Positions 30,288 through 50,366 of a stretch of DNA of 64,000 nucleotides are shown here, piece after piece. The stretch is from positions 124,001-188,000 of the forward strand of contig NZ_BONK01000005.1 in assembly GCF_016862675.1 (NCBI RefSeq), written 5' to 3'. Every line of letters begins with the position of its first letter. The first letter of the stretch is position 1. The notes under the pieces were generated by a model. It searched no databases, was not told the origin of the DNA, and worked only from the letters and a program-made list of their open reading frames with translations. This DNA comes from Cellulomonas chitinilytica (GTDB lineage Bacteria > Actinomycetota > Actinomycetes > Actinomycetales > Cellulomonadaceae). A program made the position numbers and the translations under genes.

Positions 30288-31724
30288 ATGCGTAGAGCAA
30301 AGATCGTCTGCACCATCGGCCCCGCCACGGAGTCCGCCGAACAGCTCCAGGCCCTCGTGGACGCCGGGATGGACGTGGCCCGGATCAACCGGAGCCACGG
30401 TGACACCGAGGCGCACAAGAAGGTGTACGACAACGTCCGGGCGGCCGCGAAGGCCTCCGGGCGTTCCGTTGCCGTCCTCGTGGACCTCCAGGGCCCGAAG
30501 ATCCGCCTCGGGCGGTTCATCGAGGGCAAGCACGACCTCGCCGTCGGTGACGTGTTCACCATCACGACCGACGAGGTCGAGGGCACCAAGGAGCGCGTCG
30601 GGACGACGTTCAAGGGCCTGCCGGGCGACGTGAAGCCGGGCGACCCGATCCTCATCGACGACGGCAAGGTGCTCGTCCGCGTCACCGCCGTCGAGGGCAA
30701 CGACGTCGTCACGCGCGTCGAGGTCCCGGGCCCCGTGTCGAACAACAAGGGCCTCAACCTGCCGGGCGTCGCTGTGTCGATCCCCGCGATGAGCGACAAG
30801 GACGAGGCGGACCTGCGCTGGGCCCTCCAGATCGGCGCCGACATCATCGCGCTGTCGTTCGTCCGCAACGCGGCCGACTACGACGACGTGCGCCGGATCA
30901 TGGAGGAGGAGGGCCGGGTCGTCCCGGTCATCGCCAAGATCGAGAAGCCGCAGGCCGTCGACAACCTTGCGGAGATCGTCGCCCGGTTCGACGGCATCAT
31001 GGTCGCCCGCGGCGACCTCGGCGTGGAGCTGCCCCTCGAGCAGGTCCCGCTCGTGCAGAAGCGTGCCGTCGAGCTGGCCCGCCGCAACGCGAAGCCCGTC
31101 ATCGTCGCCACCCAGGTGCTCGAGTCGATGACGACGAACCCGCGCCCGACGCGCGCCGAGACGTCCGACTGCGCCAACGCGGTGCTCGACGGCGCGGACG
31201 CGGTGATGCTCTCGGGCGAGACGAGCGTCGGCGACTACCCGATCGAGACGGTCCGCACGATGGCCCGGATCATCGAGGCCACCGAGGAGCTCGGCCGCGA
31301 GCGCATCGCGCCCCTCGGCTCGACGCCGCACACCCGTGGTGGTGCGATCACGCGGGCCGCGGCCGAGATCGGCGAGGCGCTCGGGGTCAAGTACCTGGTG
31401 ACGTTCACGCAGTCCGGCGACTCGGCGCGTCGCATGTCGCGTCTGCGTTCGGCGATCCCGCTGCTCGCGTTCACGCCGGTCGACTCGGTGCGCAACGTGC
31501 TGTCGCTCAGCTGGGGCGTGAACACCTACCAGGTGCCGTCCGTCGACAACACGGACCAGATGGTCAACCAGGTGGACGCCACGCTCCGCGCGAACGGGCT
31601 CGCCGAGATCGGCGACTACGTGGTGGTCGTCGCCGGCACGCCCGTCGGCGTCGTGGGCTCGACGAACTCGATCGTCGTCCACAAGATCGGCGACGAGGAG
31701 AACCCGGGCGGCCGCGTCGCCTGA
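30288..31724 (+). CDS. pyk: Pyruvate kinase
   Basis: Last step of glycolysis: phosphoenolpyruvate plus ADP gives pyruvate plus ATP. The 478-residue enzyme begins MRRAKIVCTIGPAT, has the metal/substrate motif IIAKIEKPQAVDN, the active-site MVARGDLGVELPLEQVP and ATQVLESMTTNPRPTRAE, and a C-terminal allosteric domain. A strong hairpin follows it. Pyruvate phosphate dikinase, which runs the opposite way, is encoded later in the window. Confidence 0.98.
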   Translation: MRRAKIVCTIGPATESAEQLQALVDAGMDVARINRSHGDTEAHKKVYDNVRAAAKASGRSVAVLVDLQGPKIRLGRFIEGKHDLAVGDVFTITTDEVEGTKERVGTTFKGLPGDVKPGDPILIDDGKVLVRVTAVEGNDVVTRVEVPGPVSNNKGLNLPGVAVSIPAMSDKDEADLRWALQIGADIIALSFVRNAADYDDVRRIMEEEGRVVPVIAKIEKPQAVDNLAEIVARFDGIMVARGDLGVELPLEQVPLVQKRAVELARRNAKPVIVATQVLESMTTNPRPTRAETSDCANAVLDGADAVMLSGETSVGDYPIETVRTMARIIEATEELGRERIAPLGSTPHTRGGAITRAAAEIGEALGVKYLVTFTQSGDSARRMSRLRSAIPLLAFTPVDSVRNVLSLSWGVNTYQVPSVDNTDQMVNQVDATLRANGLAEIGDYVVVVAGTPVGVVGSTNSIVVHKIGDEENPGGRVA

Positions 31725-31744
31725 CGCTCCGCTCGCACGACGTG

Positions 31745-31777
31745 ACGGGCCCCGGGGAGATCCTCCCCGGGGCCCGT
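31745..31777 (+). terminator. Strong terminator-like hairpin after pyk
   Basis: A perfect 15-bp inverted repeat (31745-31759 with 31763-31777, loop ATC) starts 20 bases after the pyk stop. It is the strongest hairpin in the window and separates pyk from the accessory block. There is no U-tract. Confidence 0.8.
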
Positions 31778-31895
31778 CGGCGTCTCGGCGGGGTCACCAG
31801 GGCCCGGTCCGGCGCACCGTCGGCGACCTCGGGTGCTCGTGCCCGGGAGCGAGCACACTGGTCGCGTCCGGTATCGGCGGCGGCCGGGGGAGACG

Positions 31896-34280
31896 GTGGC
31901 GAAGAAGTCCACGCAGCAGCCTGTCGTCCATCTCGTCACGGGTGACGTCCTGGACCAGCGGGGCGAGATGCTCGTGATCCCGACGTCGGGGCGCGGCCCG
32001 GTCGGCGACCCGTGGGCCACCTACCTGGGCTCGATCCGGGCAGTGCCGCCCACGGGGGTCCTCCGGGTCGGTCAGGTGGTGCACCAGGAGGCGCCCACGG
32101 GGTCGACCTTCCGGCACCTCGTGTACGCGGTCATCATCGAGTCGCCGTCCGGGTCCGCGGATGCCGCGGTGATCGAGGGGATCGCCGGGTCGATCGGGAA
32201 GCTCGCCGGTGGCGTCGGGGTGCGGTCGGTCGTGTCGCCGCTCCTCGGGACAGCTGTCGGTGGTCCGACCGACGACATCGCGCTGTCGGCGATGCGGGCG
32301 GGGTTCCGCCGGACCGCGTCGCCCGACGCGGAGCTCATCGTGGCGGTCCATGACCCGGAGCGGTCCGACGCCCTGCTCGCCGTCCCGGGCACGGGCGAGG
32401 GCGACGGGCCGGGGGTGGGGCGCGACGACCCCGCCGGGGCCGACGACGCCGCCGAGACCGGCGTCGGCGCCGGATCCGGGTCGATATCGATCGTGCGCCC
32501 GGGCCACGGCACGGCGCCGGTCGCAGGAGAGCCGGCCGCGAGCGGGACGGACGGGAGCGCGGCGAACCCGCCGGACGAGGACGGGGCGAGCGGTGCGCCG
32601 CGGGAGCTGCCGACCGACGCGTCGCCTGCACAGCCCGTGCCGCCGGCACCGCACGCGCCGCCAGGACCGCACGCGCCGCCTTCACAGCCCGCGCCGCCGG
32701 TGTCCGCGGCCGGCCGGACGCGGCTCGTGCACGACCAGCCGGCGGGGGACGACGAGCTGGGGCGGATGAGCCTCGCGGTCGAGGTCGCGTCGCTCGTGCG
32801 GGAGATGGGCAGGTCCCACGACCGGCCGGAGGCCTTCGCGATCCATCTCGACGCCCCGTGGGGCGCGGGGAAGAGCACCCTGGTCGGTTTCATCGGCCGG
32901 GCGCTGGCGGAGGAAGGGCCGGACGGGGACCCGGCGTGGACCGTCGTCTCGCTGGACGCCTGGCGGGAGTCGCAGCTGTCCCCGGCGTGGTGGGCCATCC
33001 TCGGTCACCTCCGACGAGGGGTCGCGGAGTCGCTGGACGGGCGGGCGCGGGTGGGGTTCGCGCTGCGGCGGACGTGGCGGTCGGTCCGCCGGCTCTGGCG
33101 CATCTGGGTGCCGCCGGCGCTCGTGCTCGTCGTGCTCGCGGTCCTCGCCCGGTACACGGACGTCGCGGGTCTCGTCCCGGTCGTCACGGCGCTGGTCGCC
33201 GTCGTGGTCGCGGTCGGAGGGCTCGGGAGCCGGTTCCTGTCGCTCGGGTCGCTGCAGGGCGCCCGTGTCCACCAGCTCCTCAACGACAACCCCATGGAGG
33301 AGGTCGTCGACCAGATCTGGGCCATCCGCCGCGCGTCGCCCCGGCCGGTCCTGCTGGTGCTGGACGACCTCGACCGGTGCAACGAGCGGTTCACGGTCGA
33401 GCTGCTCGACGCCGTCCAGACGCTGCTGCGTTCCGGGCCGGAGGGCGGCGACGGGCGGCCGGACCGTTCGCGACCGCCCGCGCTGATCGTGCTCGCCGTC
33501 GGTGACGGCCGGTGGTTGCGTGCGGCGTACGAGAACGCGTACGCGGTGTTCTCCGACTCGGTGAGCGAACCGGGGCGGCCTCTCGGGCACCTGTTCCTCG
33601 ACAAGCTGTTCCAGCTGCGGGTCGAGCTGCCGCGCCTGGACCGGTCCCAGGTGTCGCGCTACCTGTCGCACCTCCTCGACGTCCCGCAGGCCACGGGACC
33701 GGTCGACGCGGGTGCCCTGGAGGAGAGGATCCGGGCCGCGCCGTCCGACACGGCGGGTGCGCACTCGCTCGACGAGCGCATGTCGACGCTCCTGAGCGAG
33801 GCGCAGGGTCTCGGTGACGCGGAGCGGCAGCGGCTCGCGGCCGTCGCCCTCGAGGCGCGGCGCACCGACCCCGCCCGTGAGGCGCGGCAGCGCCACCTCC
33901 TCGAGGAGTACGCGGACCTCCTGGAGCCGAACCCGCGCGCCACCAAGCGGTTCCTCATGGCGTACAACGTGGGGTTCGCGGCGCGCCTGACGGAGCTCGA
34001 GCCGCTCGACCCGCGCACGCTCGCGCTGTGGACGGTGGTCGCGACCCGCTGGCCGGCGCTGGCCGAGTGGGTCCGCGACGAGCTGCCGCACGGAGACCTG
34101 CGCCCCGTCGACGTCCCCGGGCACCCGAGCCTGCTGCTGCGGGAGCCGCAGGTGCAGGACGTCGTGACGTCCGCGCTCGGTGGGCCGCTCGACCGTGACG
34201 CGGTCCTGCGGTGCTGCGGCCACCTCGTCCTGCGTGAGACCGACCCGTCCTCGTCCCACGTGGACGGCGCACGGCGGTGA
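31896..34280 (+). CDS. Macro-domain-like / KAP-family P-loop NTPase fusion, membrane-anchored
   Basis: An unusual fusion of 794 residues. Residues about 10-165 resemble a macro (ADP-ribose-binding) domain: HLVTGDVLDQRGEMLVIPT, then RHLVYAVIIES and the late VVSPLLGTAVGGPTDDIAL loop. The N-terminal Asn and Gly-rich loop of active ADP-ribosyl hydrolases are missing. A disordered Pro/Ala/Gly linker (170-290) leads to a KAP NTPase: Walker A APWGAGKST (Lys326), two membrane segments inserted at about 405-445, Walker B LLVLDDLDRCN near 490, and the C-terminal NPRATKRFLMAYN near 678. KAP ATPases are often found in defence and membrane-complex settings. The GTG at 31896 follows CGGGGGAGA; an earlier GTG at 31833 is possible. 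It overlaps the next gene by four bases. Function unknown. Confidence 0.8.
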   Translation: MAKKSTQQPVVHLVTGDVLDQRGEMLVIPTSGRGPVGDPWATYLGSIRAVPPTGVLRVGQVVHQEAPTGSTFRHLVYAVIIESPSGSADAAVIEGIAGSIGKLAGGVGVRSVVSPLLGTAVGGPTDDIALSAMRAGFRRTASPDAELIVAVHDPERSDALLAVPGTGEGDGPGVGRDDPAGADDAAETGVGAGSGSISIVRPGHGTAPVAGEPAASGTDGSAANPPDEDGASGAPRELPTDASPAQPVPPAPHAPPGPHAPPSQPAPPVSAAGRTRLVHDQPAGDDELGRMSLAVEVASLVREMGRSHDRPEAFAIHLDAPWGAGKSTLVGFIGRALAEEGPDGDPAWTVVSLDAWRESQLSPAWWAILGHLRRGVAESLDGRARVGFALRRTWRSVRRLWRIWVPPALVLVVLAVLARYTDVAGLVPVVTALVAVVVAVGGLGSRFLSLGSLQGARVHQLLNDNPMEEVVDQIWAIRRASPRPVLLVLDDLDRCNERFTVELLDAVQTLLRSGPEGGDGRPDRSRPPALIVLAVGDGRWLRAAYENAYAVFSDSVSEPGRPLGHLFLDKLFQLRVELPRLDRSQVSRYLSHLLDVPQATGPVDAGALEERIRAAPSDTAGAHSLDERMSTLLSEAQGLGDAERQRLAAVALEARRTDPAREARQRHLLEEYADLLEPNPRATKRFLMAYNVGFAARLTELEPLDPRTLALWTVVATRWPALAEWVRDELPHGDLRPVDVPGHPSLLLREPQVQDVVTSALGGPLDRDAVLRCCGHLVLRETDPSSSHVDGARR

Positions 34281-35752
34281 CGCGGACGTCGGACGCGGAC
34301 GGGGCGGCGGCTCGCGGGGACGTCGTGGGCCCGGGGGTGCGTGCGACGCCGGTGACGGTCGTGACGCTCGCGACGATGGTCGTCGGGTCGATGGTCGGGG
34401 CCGGGGTCTTCTCGTTGCCGCAGCGCTTCGCAGAGGAGACGGGGGTCGTCGGGGCCCTCATCGCCTGGACGGTCGCCGGCACGGGGATGCTCATGCTGGC
34501 GTTCGTCTTCCAGAACCTCGCCGTGCGCAAGCCGCACCTCGACGCGGGGGTGTACGCGTACGCGAAGGCCGGGTTCGGCGAGTACCTGGGCTTCTTCTCG
34601 GCGTTCGGGTACTGGGCGAGCGCGTGCGTCGGCAACGTCACGTACTGGGTGCTGATCATGTCGACCGCGGGGGCGCTGGTCCCGGCGCTCGGCGACGGCG
34701 GGACGCCCGCGGCGTTCGTGGCGTCGACGGTCGGCCTGTGGGTGTTCTTCTGGCTGGTCCGTCGTGGCGTCCGCACGGCGACGTCGGTGAACCGGGTCGT
34801 CACGATCGCCAAGGTGGTCCCGATCGTGGTGTTCGTGCTGCTGTGCGCGTTCGCGCTGGACGTCGACGTGCTCGTGGCGAACCTGCGGGGGATCGACTCG
34901 GCGGGGTCGCTGTTCGAGCAGGTGCGCGGCACGATGCTCGTCACGGTGTTCGTGTTCCTCGGCGTCGAGGGCGCGAGCGTCTACTCCCGGCACGCGCGGC
35001 GGCGTCAGGACGTCGGCCGGGCGACGGTCCTCGGGTTCCTCAGCGTGTTCGCGGTGTTCGCGTCGGTGACGATCGTCTCGTACGGGATCCTGCCGATGAG
35101 CGAGCTCGCCGGGCTGCCGCAGCCGTCGATGGCCGGGGTCCTCGAGGCCGCGGTGGGCGGCTGGGGGCGCGCGTTCGTGAGCGTCGGGCTCGTCGTCTCC
35201 GTGCTGGGGGCGTACCTCGCGTGGACGCTCATGGCGGCGGAGGTGCTGTTCGTCGCCGCGACCGACCGGGACATGCCCCGGTTCCTCACCGGCGTGAACG
35301 CCGCCGACGTGCCGGTGCACGCGCTCCTGATGACCGCGGTGCTGGCGCAGGTGTTCCTCGTCGTCACGCTGTTCTCCGAGTCCGCGTTCGACTTCGCGCT
35401 GAACCTGACGAGCTCGCTCGCGCTCGTCCCGTACCTGCTGGCCGCGGCGTACGGCCTCAAGCTCGTGCTGACGCGCGACTCGTACCCGGCGGGCTCGCCG
35501 ACCGTCCGTCGGGATCTCGTCGTCGGTGCCCTGGCGACCGTGTACACGGCGTTCCTGCTGTACGCGGCCGGGCCGACGTACCTGCTCGTCTCGTTCGTGG
35601 TCTACGCGCCGGCGACGATCCTGTTCGTCATGGCCCGGCGCGAGCAGGGTCGGCGGCTGTTCTCGGCGCGGGAGGTCGTCATCCTCGTCGTGTCGCTCGC
35701 CGGCGCTGTCGTCGGCGTCGTCGCGCTCGTCGCGGGGTGGATCCACCTGTGA
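34277..35752 (+). CDS. APC-superfamily amino-acid permease (basic amino acid antiporter-like)
   Basis: A 491-residue transporter with about twelve membrane segments. The first segment carries MVVGSMVGAGVFSLPQ, the substrate-binding GxG loop of the APC fold, and VFLGVEGASVYSRHARRRQDVGRAT matches the mid-helix motif of the arginine/ornithine antiporter (ArcD/YjdE) group. An exchanger of basic amino acids is the best guess. The GTG overlaps the stop of the macro-KAP gene (GTGA), so they are translated together, although nothing else shows a functional tie. It converges on the LuxR-type regulator. Confidence 0.87.
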   Translation: MTRTSDADGAAARGDVVGPGVRATPVTVVTLATMVVGSMVGAGVFSLPQRFAEETGVVGALIAWTVAGTGMLMLAFVFQNLAVRKPHLDAGVYAYAKAGFGEYLGFFSAFGYWASACVGNVTYWVLIMSTAGALVPALGDGGTPAAFVASTVGLWVFFWLVRRGVRTATSVNRVVTIAKVVPIVVFVLLCAFALDVDVLVANLRGIDSAGSLFEQVRGTMLVTVFVFLGVEGASVYSRHARRRQDVGRATVLGFLSVFAVFASVTIVSYGILPMSELAGLPQPSMAGVLEAAVGGWGRAFVSVGLVVSVLGAYLAWTLMAAEVLFVAATDRDMPRFLTGVNAADVPVHALLMTAVLAQVFLVVTLFSESAFDFALNLTSSLALVPYLLAAAYGLKLVLTRDSYPAGSPTVRRDLVVGALATVYTAFLLYAAGPTYLLVSFVVYAPATILFVMARREQGRRLFSAREVVILVVSLAGAVVGVVALVAGWIHL

Positions 35753-48564: not shown

Positions 48565-49074
48565 TCAGCCCTTCCCTCTGCCCGGGCCTTTCGGCCCGCT
48601 CGGGCCCTTCTTGTCCTTCGGCGCGGGCGCAGGCTGGGGGTCGGCGGGCCGGGCGGGCGTGGCGGCCGCCGCACGGTCGGCTGCCGCCTGGTCGGCCGCA
48701 GCCTGTGCTGCTGCCTGTTCCGTGGCGGCCTGCACCGCGGCCGCCTGCTGCGCAGCCGCCTCGGCCGCGACCGCCTGCGCGCGGGCCGCCGCCAGCGCAC
48801 CCGCGACCCGGTCGAGCGCGCGATCGACCTCGCGGTACCGGGAGGTGGAGACCTCGCCGGCGTCGACGCCGTCGTCGAGCCGGCCGCGGGTGTCCACCAG
48901 TGCCGCCTCGGCGTCGTCCCACCGGCCCGCAGCGGCGGCGGACGTGACGTCGAGGACCGCGGCCTGCAGGGACGCGGCGCGTTCGTCCGCGAGGTCGGGA
49001 CGCTCGGCGCACCCTGCGGTGACGAGCGCGACCGCGAGCACGACGACGGCCACGGCCCGCGCACGCCCGGTCAC
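48565..49074 (-). CDS. Ala-rich lipoprotein coupled to a Ser/Thr kinase
   Basis: A 169-residue protein with a lipoprotein signal (lipobox VTAGC, Cys about 22), a helical part (about 30-85), a long Ala/Gln-rich helical stretch (about 90-140) and a Lys/Gly/Pro-rich tail ending KGPGRGKG. It likely sits outside the membrane as a coiled rod. Its GTG overlaps the stop of the kinase gene by four bases (GTGA), so the two are made together and may act together. Function unknown. Confidence 0.75.
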   Translation of the reverse strand: MTGRARAVAVVVLAVALVTAGCAERPDLADERAASLQAAVLDVTSAAAAGRWDDAEAALVDTRGRLDDGVDAGEVSTSRYREVDRALDRVAGALAAARAQAVAAEAAAQQAAAVQAATEQAAAQAAADQAAADRAAAATPARPADPQPAPAPKDKKGPSGPKGPGRGKG

Positions 49075-50270
49075 GGCGCGACGCTTTCCTGCAGCGCCGT
49101 CAGAGCGTCGCCCAGGTCGCCGTCGACCCGTGGGTAGGTCGGAGGGGGCGGCAGCTCGTCCGAGCCGGACGCGCGCACGCCGACCACGACCGCGCCCGCG
49201 GCGAGCAGCACGGCCCCCGCGCCGGCCAGCCACCGGCGTCGTGCCCGTGCGGTGGCCGTCGGCGCGGCGTTGGCCAAGGGCCGGGTCGTGGCCGTGCGCG
49301 GCGACCGGGTGCCGGGCACGTCGACCTGCTGCACGGGACGGGTCCGGGGCAGGCCGGCGTGCCCGTGCGGCGGCGCCGCCGTCAGCGCCGCGACCTCCTG
49401 CGCCGCGGGCCGGTCGCCCGGCTCCAGGGCCGTCATCCGCCTCAGGAGCGCCCCGAGCTCGGTGCCCGCCTCGTCCGGCACCGGTGGTCCGGCCGTGAGC
49501 CGGACCGCGGCCGACTCCGCCGCCGTGCCCGCGAACGCGGGCGCGCCCGTGAGGCACTCGACGAGCACCAGGCCGAGGGCGTACACGTCCGTGGCCGGGC
49601 CGACAGGCCCGCCGACCGCCTGCTCCGGGCTCAGGTAGCGCATCGTGCCCACGGTGACGCCCGTCATGGTCAGGCGCGTCGTGCCGGCCAGGCGGGCGAT
49701 GCCGAAGTCGGCCAGCTTGACGACCGGTCCGGTGCGGGGATCGTGCCCGCGCAGGCCGGTCGCCGACGTGAGCAGCACGTTGCCCGGCTTGACGTCCCGG
49801 TGCACCACCCGTCCGGCGTGCACGGCCGACAGCGCGTCGGCGAGCTCGTGGGCGACGACCAGCGTCTCCTCGAGGGTCAGCGGGCCGTCCGCGAGGCGTT
49901 CGGCGAGCGTGGGGCCGTCGACGACCTCCATGACGAGGTACGTCTGGTGGCCGCCCTGCGCGGCGACGGAGCCCGCGTCGAGCAGCGTGACGAGGTTCGG
50001 GTGGTCGAACGCCGCCAGCACCCGGATCTCGGCGGCGTGCCGCGACAGGTCGTCGGCGTCGTCGACGCAGGGGAACAGCTTGACCGCGACGTCACGCTCG
50101 AGCACCAGGTCGTGCGCGCGGAAGACGGTCGCCATCCCGCCCCGGCCGAGGACGTCGCCGAGGCGGTACCGGCCGTCGAGCGTCGGCGACGGTCCGGCCG
50201 CGTCCGCGCCGGCCGCGTCCACGGGGGCGCCCGACGGACCCGGCCGGGTCTCGCCCCGTCGATCCAGCAT
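49071..50270 (-). CDS. PknB-type Ser/Thr protein kinase, single-TM
   Basis: A 399-residue receptor-like kinase. The kinase domain (about 35-290) has GRGGMATVF, the Lys in VAVKLF, the catalytic HRDVKPGN and DFGIARL followed by a Thr-rich activation loop. A basic stretch precedes one membrane segment (about 350-368) and a short outside tail of about 30 residues; there are no PASTA repeats. The ATG at 50270 was chosen over an upstream start without a ribosome-binding site. The overlapping lipoprotein gene may encode its partner. Confidence 0.92.
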   Translation of the reverse strand: MLDRRGETRPGPSGAPVDAAGADAAGPSPTLDGRYRLGDVLGRGGMATVFRAHDLVLERDVAVKLFPCVDDADDLSRHAAEIRVLAAFDHPNLVTLLDAGSVAAQGGHQTYLVMEVVDGPTLAERLADGPLTLEETLVVAHELADALSAVHAGRVVHRDVKPGNVLLTSATGLRGHDPRTGPVVKLADFGIARLAGTTRLTMTGVTVGTMRYLSPEQAVGGPVGPATDVYALGLVLVECLTGAPAFAGTAAESAAVRLTAGPPVPDEAGTELGALLRRMTALEPGDRPAAQEVAALTAAPPHGHAGLPRTRPVQQVDVPGTRSPRTATTRPLANAAPTATARARRRWLAGAGAVLLAAGAVVVGVRASGSDELPPPPTYPRVDGDLGDALTALQESVAP

Positions 50271-50366
50271 CGTTCGACGGTAGGTGCCCCGTCCCGGAGC
50301 CGCACGCGGACCCACGGGCGTGCGTGGGCGCCGACGGCGGTCGCCCGGGACGTCGCCGGCCCCCGC

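What the first reader, a model, noticed from the sequence alone, without database searches (positions are those of the whole stretch)
31896..34280. Macro-domain-like / KAP NTPase fusion translationally coupled to an amino-acid permease
The sequence shows a macro-like N-terminal domain without the Asn and Gly-rich catalytic loop, a 120-residue disordered linker, and a KAP P-loop NTPase with inserted membrane segments. KAP ATPases are linked to membrane complexes and anti-phage defence; macro domains bind ADP-ribose or related nucleotides. One chain joining both would make a membrane-tethered ATPase that could sense an NAD-derived signal. The four-base overlap with an APC permease is an added oddity. 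This is the strongest candidate here for an undescribed system.
Basis: partly seen in the sequence, partly recalled or inferred. Interest (0 to 1): 0.75.

Follow-up and report, generated by a model that had tools for sequence, protein, structure and literature searches.

The report
Macro-domain KAP membrane ATPase
A Cellulomonas-like bacterium carries a membrane-anchored ATPase of a type linked to anti-phage defence, fused to a fast-changing and probably non-catalytic cousin of the ADP-ribose-binding macro domain; it looks like an undescribed variant of a known class of bacterial alarm proteins, but its function has not been tested.

Summary
Residues ~8-165 have a macro fold: the AlphaFold2 model (pLDDT 79) matches macro protein TTHA0132 at Z 17.0, and weak sequence hits agree. 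The NAAN stretch is replaced in all three orthologues. A 107-residue Pro/Ala/Gly linker leads to a KAP P-loop NTPase (Pfam 1.7e-19) with two membrane segments between Walker A and B.

Five of 81 genus genomes match: three close intact copies, one remnant beside pyk, one distant KAP with another N-terminus. One intact copy lies within about 11 kb of type I restriction, AbiEi-like, Fic and NsnB-like genes; the other two follow pyruvate kinase. Relatives in other actinobacteria join the KAP to trypsin-like or WD40 modules. Between two orthologues, macro dN/dS is 0.48 and KAP 0.156.

Best reading: a single-protein KAP-type conflict ATPase (a variant of the Tmn/PifA kind) with a degenerate macro module. 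ADP-ribose sensing is weakly supported. The antiporter overlap is a local operon, not an obligate partner. Function is inferred only.

The parts
31896..34280 (+). macro-like/KAP NTPase fusion gene, 794 aa, GTG start
   Evidence: ORF and translation; orthologue L002 with the same start; 3 orthologues aligned
31917..32390 (+). degenerate macro-fold domain (residues about 8-165); GD Asp17 kept, NAAN position reads I-P-T-S
   Evidence: AF2 model pLDDT 79, pTM 0.80; 2dx6_A Z 17.0, rmsd 2.5, 149 aligned; profile search
32391..32711 (+). low-complexity Pro/Ala/Gly linker (residues 166-272)
   Evidence: composition; 47% identity over 70 aligned residues with L002 and 37% over 30 with the G012 copy
32712..34223 (+). 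KAP P-loop NTPase and C-terminal helical region (residues 273-776)
   Evidence: Pfam KAP_NTPase 1.7e-19 over residues 311-689; AF2 model pLDDT 73, AAA+/STAND-type core
32853..32879 (+). Walker A (APWGAGKST; the first Gly is Ala in the Cellulomonas copies aligned)
   Evidence: alignments
33093..33218 (+). two inserted hydrophobic (transmembrane) segments, residues about 400-441
   Evidence: hydropathy maxima 2.13 and 2.61; long helices in the model
33348..33380 (+). Walker B and KAP motif VLLVLDDLDRC
   Evidence: LDRC is invariant in all 7 aligned sequences
31725..31790 (+). strong hairpin between pyk and the KAP gene, probable pyk terminator (no T-run)
   Evidence: fold -51.1 kcal/mol, z -5.25; a similar inverted repeat is visible in L002 (by eye); the terminator scan found no site
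34277..35752 (+). basic amino-acid/arginine-ornithine antiporter-type APC permease overlapping the KAP stop by 4 bases; neighbour, not shown to be a partner
   Evidence: same overlap in L002; no tblastn hit in the fetched G012 and G031 regions

Best explanation
An accessory, single-protein conflict (abortive-infection-like) ATPase of the KAP kind. Shown or predicted from sequence: a KAP NTPase with a two-pass membrane hairpin inserted in the ATPase core, joined by a probably flexible linker to a fast-evolving, degenerate macro-fold module. Inferred mechanism: the protein rests as a membrane-anchored nucleotide-bound monomer; the macro-like module recognises an infection-linked trigger, either a nucleotide-like ligand other than free ADP-ribose or a foreign protein; this permits ATP-driven ring assembly of the AAA+/STAND-like core; clustering of the membrane hairpins then perturbs the inner membrane and halts the cell or the phage. 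The N-terminal module is the exchangeable part of the chassis: macro-like here, trypsin-like or WD40 in relatives. No step of the mechanism has been tested.
For: KAP domain and membrane hairpin. The core model matches defence or cell-death oligomerising ATPases: RdrA Z 16.7, CED-4 Z 12.5, NRC4 resistosome Z 12.4; Orc/Cdc6 replication proteins reach 15.6 in the same list, so this supports the AAA+/STAND class, not a function. Patchy presence: 5 of 81 genus genomes, one of them a decayed remnant. The G012 copy lies within about 11 kb of HsdM, HsdS and HsdR, a NsnB-like AAA ATPase, an AbiEi_2 gene and a Fic gene. Different N-termini on related KAPs: Trypsin_2 and WD40. Macro domain identity 64% and 27.5%, against 86-91% and 58-76.5% for KAP segments; dN/dS 0.48 against 0.156 in one pair. 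PADLOC partial hits to PDC-S20, PifA and QatA over the KAP part. Tmn is a KAP defence protein with two membrane domains (PMC11846954, passages).
Against: Two of three intact close copies sit beside pyk and other housekeeping or regulatory genes. For the copies with other N-termini in G170, G372 and G403 I saw no defence system nearby (mostly read by eye, only two G170 neighbours scanned with Pfam; one of these, a glycosyltransferase, also passes the GT4-conflict cut-off, 56.6 against 26 bits, though general models score higher). No PADLOC or NCBIfam model fits the whole protein: NCBIfam QatA 28.5 bits against a cut-off of 600. No relative confirmed in the viral collection (6 peptide patterns) or found in phages; none in plasmids with the window protein, and only 22.5-28% identity with the G170 KAP. 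Faster evolution of the N-terminus could be relaxed constraint. CED-4 and NRC4 Z values are below the level (about 13) that the tool warns about for helical models. No activity data.
Confidence: 0.45

Rival explanations
1. The macro-like module is a true sensor of ADP-ribose or a related NAD-derived signal, and the KAP membrane part is its effector, by analogy with TM-macro ThsA of Thoeris.
For: Macro fold; Asp of the GD motif kept in 3 of 3 and the GTxVGG loop in 2 of 3; TM-macro ThsA precedent, in which nucleotides induce macro-domain oligomers that would cluster the membrane segments (PMC11204291, abstract and passages).
Against: NAAN position replaced in 3 of 3 (IPTS, VPTA, VPAF), first loop shortened, second loop lost in G012. 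No TIR or other NAD-processing gene among the neighbours annotated here (not every window ORF was scanned).
Confidence: 0.15
2. The N-terminal macro-like module is an output or adaptor domain (as N-terminal domains often are in STAND proteins) and the trigger is sensed by the KAP/C-terminal part or by another protein.
For: A relative carries a trypsin-like peptidase at the same place, an effector-type domain; N-terminal effectors or adaptors are common in NTP-dependent conflict systems (PMC7159879, PMC8195603 and PMC10907252, passages).
Against: Two other relatives carry WD40 there, usually a recognition or scaffold module; the macro-like domain seems to lack catalytic residues, so it is a poor enzyme effector; the C-terminal part evolves more slowly than the macro part.
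Confidence: 0.2
3. A regulator or chaperone of the downstream arginine/ornithine-type antiporter, a housekeeping membrane function.
For: Four-base overlap, conserved in L002; two of three intact copies share the order pyk-KAP-antiporter.
Against: The G012 copy has no antiporter in the 44.6 kb fetched around it (tblastn at E 1e-3) and the G031 remnant has none in its 20 kb; KAP relatives elsewhere have unrelated neighbours. Present in few genus genomes.
Confidence: 0.12
4. Simply an orthologue of a known KAP defence system (Tmn, PifA or QatA) with nothing new.
For: Partial PADLOC hits to PifA 1.5e-9 and QatA 1.9e-4; Tmn also has two membrane domains.
Against: The PifA, PDC-S20 and better QatA hits cover only the KAP N-half. 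No QatB, QatC or QatD beside it, unlike a distant Rhodococcus plasmid relative, whose gene row (P-loop NTPase, two hypothetical genes, TatD) resembles a Qat row. About 270 extra N-terminal residues are not covered.
Confidence: 0.08

Closest known systems
Tmn (KAP-family anti-phage protein, E. coli)
   Same: KAP NTPase with two membrane domains, linked to phage defence (PMC11846954, passages)
   Different: No macro module is named in the passages seen; no direct sequence comparison was made here; Tmn's mechanism is unknown too
PifA (F-plasmid T7 exclusion, recalled) and PADLOC candidate PDC-S20
   Same: partial profile match over the KAP N-half (E 1.5e-9 and 5.9e-11)
   Different: match covers about 220-230 residues only; N-terminal module not covered
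QatABCD
   Same: QatA is the ATPase of the Qat anti-phage system; partial match (NCBIfam 28.5 bits, cut-off 600)
   Different: no QatB, QatC or QatD recognised among the neighbours annotated in the window or at the G012 copy
TM-macro ThsA of Thoeris
   Same: macro domain joined to membrane segments; nucleotide-induced oligomers are the model (PMC11204291, abstract and passages)
   Different: [quoted passage not shown] absence of a KAP ATPase there is recalled
TTHA0132 (2dx6) macro-domain protein
   Same: same fold, Z 17.0, 149 residues, 19% identity; GD and GTGVGG-type loop
   Different: NAAN motif replaced; part of a large multidomain membrane protein here
NTP-dependent conflict systems of multicellular bacteria (STAND or KAP with trypsin, WD40 or EAD modules)
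   Same: modular N-termini on an NTPase; KAP named as an alternative NTPase (PMC8195603; PMC10907252; passages)
   Different: a macro-KAP fusion was not found in the searches made

Membership tests
KAP_NTPase (PF07693) | profile score above curated cut-off | tested here: met
   70.6 bits, cut-off 20
[quoted passage not shown] paper itself not read) | tested here: met
   Walker A 320-328, hydrophobic peaks 400-441 and Walker B 485-495
Macro domain | macro fold | tested here: met
   predicted model pLDDT 79; 2dx6_A Z 17.0, rmsd 2.5, 149 aligned; a prediction from a 3-sequence alignment
Macro domain | significant match to a curated macro profile | tested here: not met
   no Pfam match up to E 10; NF001666 15.6 bits, cut-off 246, E 0.011
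Macro domain, ADP-ribose binding or hydrolysing | NAAN-type Asn and glycine-rich first loop (recalled) | tested here: not met
   IPTS, VPTA, VPAF at the aligned place in 3 of 3 orthologues
Macro domain, ADP-ribose binding or hydrolysing | binds ADP-ribose | not testable with these tools
   needs protein
Qat system | QatA score above cut-off | tested here: not met
   28.5 bits, cut-off 600
Qat system | adjacent QatB, QatC (QueC-like), QatD (TatD-like) genes (recalled) | tested here: not met
   adjacent genes are pyk, antiporter, LuxR-type regulator and an RNA-methyltransferase-type gene
Tmn | KAP NTPase with two membrane domains | tested here: met
   definition from PMC11846954 (passages)
Tmn | full-length homology to a tested Tmn and phage protection | not tested
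   no Tmn sequence compared; no assay
PifA | full-length homology | tested here: not met
   only residues 284-504 match model positions 15-203 of 720
Thoeris TM-macro ThsA | TIR (ThsB) partner gene beside it | tested here: inconclusive
   no TIR among the neighbours scanned, but not every window ORF was scanned with Pfam
NTP-dependent conflict ATPases | interchangeable N-terminal modules on a shared NTPase | tested here: met
   macro-like, Trypsin_2, WD40 in two, one without a Pfam match; KAP identities to the window 38, 32, 24 and 27% in the alignment

The most novel reading that the evidence does not exclude
A macro fold stripped of its ADP-ribose catalytic residues has been recruited as the trigger-recognition module of a membrane-embedded KAP ATPase. 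It would be an NLR-like, one-protein immune receptor in which the macro module diverges under pressure from phages, the ATPase assembles a ring, and the inserted hairpins act on the membrane. The same chassis would carry trypsin-like or WD40 modules in other actinobacteria.
Probability: 0.3. Interest if true: 0.75.

Novelty: new variant of a known kind. Interest (0 to 1): 0.5.

Why it matters
At least one KAP ATPase, Tmn, defends against phages by an unknown mechanism (PMC11846954). A family in which the ATPase and hairpin stay constant while the N-terminal module is exchanged would let the sensing and executing parts be separated by domain swaps. It would also add a macro domain that has lost its ADP-ribose motif to the list of possible immune recognition modules.

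Tried and rejected
In one search, 20 of 23 hits up to E 10 are TTHA0132 or viral nsP3/p200-type chains, which I take as macro domains (several are so titled); they reduce to about three lineages (TTHA0132, alphavirus, rubella); the other 3 are flavodoxins. Foldseek gave 202 hits at E 0.001 or better, 50 shown; 19 of these 50 are designed hydrolases of the OSH55 type (macro scaffold, recalled). Control: the reversed N-terminal sequence hit no macro domain (1 hit up to E 10, a peroxidase, E 0.28). A profile of the KAP part found no useful PDB relative by sequence (2 hits, E 0.14 and 0.19).

QatA orthology rejected (cut-off, neighbours). A PifA full-length match rejected. The antiporter as obligate partner rejected. 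A plasmid or phage origin was not found; in the viral collection 17 pattern matches, none confirmed. Genome contigs: 566 pattern matches, 1 relative; this search reaches close relatives only. A tRNA in the 20 kb around the G012 copy was not found. The promoter and terminator scan of 31650-31950 found nothing. Order-level search: own genome only, 1 of 59 at E 1e-15. Class-level: 2 of 197 at E 1e-10, with at most 7 first-look candidates scored in each listed genome, so misses are possible.

Literature: KAP NTPase + macro domain, 0 papers; KAP ATPase + macro domain, 1 paper with the terms in separate contexts; KAP + macro domain + NTPase, 0. Wider searches were read as listings, with passages of some papers. 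The survey of NAD-ADPr systems in viruses (PMC9503650) holds no word beginning with KAP in its main text. The founding KAP paper (10.1186/gb-2004-5-5-r30) is not held and was not read; a description there of macro-KAP fusions cannot be excluded.

Full report
What is there. The ORF at 31896-34280 (+) encodes 794 residues. The GTG start is shared with an orthologue in a Cellulomonas MAG (L002, BIN39), and the GGGGGAG stretch before it is the same in both (by eye). The window comes from a genome of 4.9 Mb, Cellulomonas-like by inference from L002. The gene follows pyk after a strong hairpin and overlaps an antiporter gene by four bases, as in L002.

Domains. Pfam finds KAP_NTPase at 1.7e-19. Walker A lies at residues 320-328 and Walker B at 485-495, with two hydrophobic segments between them, as expected of KAP proteins. 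An AF2 model of the KAP part (7 sequences, pLDDT 73, pTM 0.71) matches AAA+/STAND ATPases in PDB: RdrA Z 16.7 (230 aligned, rmsd 3.8), Orc2 15.6, CED-4 12.5, NRC4 12.4. This supports an oligomerising ATPase class, no more. Only model residues 2-328 are spanned by a fifth or more of the rows, and Foldseek alone gave 2 hits at E 0.001 or better, both RdrA, with low TM-scores of 0.30 and 0.29.

The N-terminus. No Pfam profile hits residues 1-175. Weak signals point to macro: NF001666 E 0.011, 2dx6 E 0.027 with one sequence and E 0.0054 with three. The reversed sequence gives none. The AF2 model (3 sequences, pLDDT 79, pTM 0.80; the five models average 79 to 52) matches TTHA0132 at Z 17.0 over 149 residues, rmsd 2.5. 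I take the macro fold as well supported, though it is a prediction. Of the ADP-ribose site, the Asp of GD is kept in 3 of 3 orthologues; NAAN is replaced in 3 of 3; the GTxVGG loop is kept in 2 of 3. The role of these residues in other macro domains is recalled.

Rate. Identity of the macro part to the two orthologues is 64% and 27.5%; that of four KAP segments is 86-91% and 58-76.5%. Nei-Gojobori dN/dS between window and L002 is 0.48 (macro, 157 codons), 0.60 (linker, 70) and 0.156 (KAP, 521). The module is constrained but changes fast; relaxed constraint and diversification cannot be told apart from one pair.

Distribution. In a 59-genome order sample only the own genome matched at E 1e-15. 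In a 197-genome class sample one further genome, G170, matched at E 1e-10. In the family of G170, 3 of 120 genomes, G170 included, matched its KAP at E 1e-12. No relative was confirmed in the viral collection or found in phages with the KAP part or in plasmids with the window protein. The G170 KAP finds 10 plasmid records at 22.5-28% identity, three of them annotated qatA.

Swapped modules. G170 has Trypsin_2 (E 1.7e-13) before the KAP. G293 and G372 have WD40/beta-propeller repeats. G403 has no Pfam hit before the KAP. So among the seven aligned sequences related KAP parts carry at least three kinds of N-terminus. The more distant of these KAPs are only 24-27% identical to the window's.

Neighbourhoods. 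The G012 copy lies within about 11 kb of HsdM, HsdS, HsdR, an AAA_21 ATPase with a NsnB match (2e-65), an AbiEi_2 gene and a Fic gene, the last being next to it. G+C is about 73% at the KAP gene and 62-65% in the restriction part, so the KAP gene may lie at the edge of that stretch and not inside it. In the window and L002 the neighbours are housekeeping or regulatory. Of 8 window neighbours scanned with PADLOC, 3 had matches at E 1e-5, which I judge generic (LuxR helix-turn-helix, methyltransferase, protein kinase). The G170, G372 and G403 copies sit beside genes without a recognised defence system (mostly read by eye; one G170 neighbour also passes the GT4-conflict cut-off). So 1 of 3 intact close orthologues has a defence context. 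This is suggestive, not decisive.

Mechanism. Shown or predicted: architecture, patchy presence, decay in one genome, module exchange. Inferred: trigger recognition by the macro-like module, ATP-driven assembly, action of the hairpins on the membrane. Precedents: Tmn, a KAP defence protein with two membrane domains and unknown mechanism (PMC11846954, passages); TM-macro ThsA, whose macro domain forms higher-order oligomers on nucleotide binding (PMC11204291, abstract and passages); KAP as an alternative NTPase in conflict systems (PMC8195603 and PMC10907252, passages).

Verdict. It is a new variant of a known kind. A macro-KAP fusion was not found in print, with the caveat that the founding KAP paper could not be read.

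Noticed in passing
L009:1318-3546 (G170): Trypsin-like peptidase fused to a related KAP chassis (PF13365 1.7e-13).
   Followed up: partly
L017:3941-6511 (G293) and L018:7868-11347 (G372): WD40/beta-propeller repeats fused to KAP; the G372 gene lies next to a row of genes that by eye resemble an amino-acid or siderophore biosynthesis set.
   Followed up: partly
L019:8654-11038 (G403): Another Cellulomonas KAP protein with an N-terminal region of about 270 residues without any Pfam match.
   Followed up: no
L008:9522-9866 (G031): Remnant of the KAP gene (75.7% identity over 115 residues) directly after pyk; the rest is missing and no antiporter was found in the fetched 20 kb.
   Followed up: yes
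L007 12000-20000 and L021 (G012): Lower-G+C stretch with type I restriction genes and a NsnB-like AAA ATPase, running to near the contig end; an ORF at L007:13101-14246 has a weak CARF3-model hit (E 0.0023).
   Followed up: partly
window 31845-31869: 25-base stretch upstream of the KAP start that is identical in L002 (compared by eye; one copy in the window); possible promoter or operator.
   Followed up: no
window 49071-50315 (-): Protein-kinase-like ORF that matches PADLOC PD-T4-6 kinase models (2e-71); probably a general Ser/Thr kinase.
   Followed up: no
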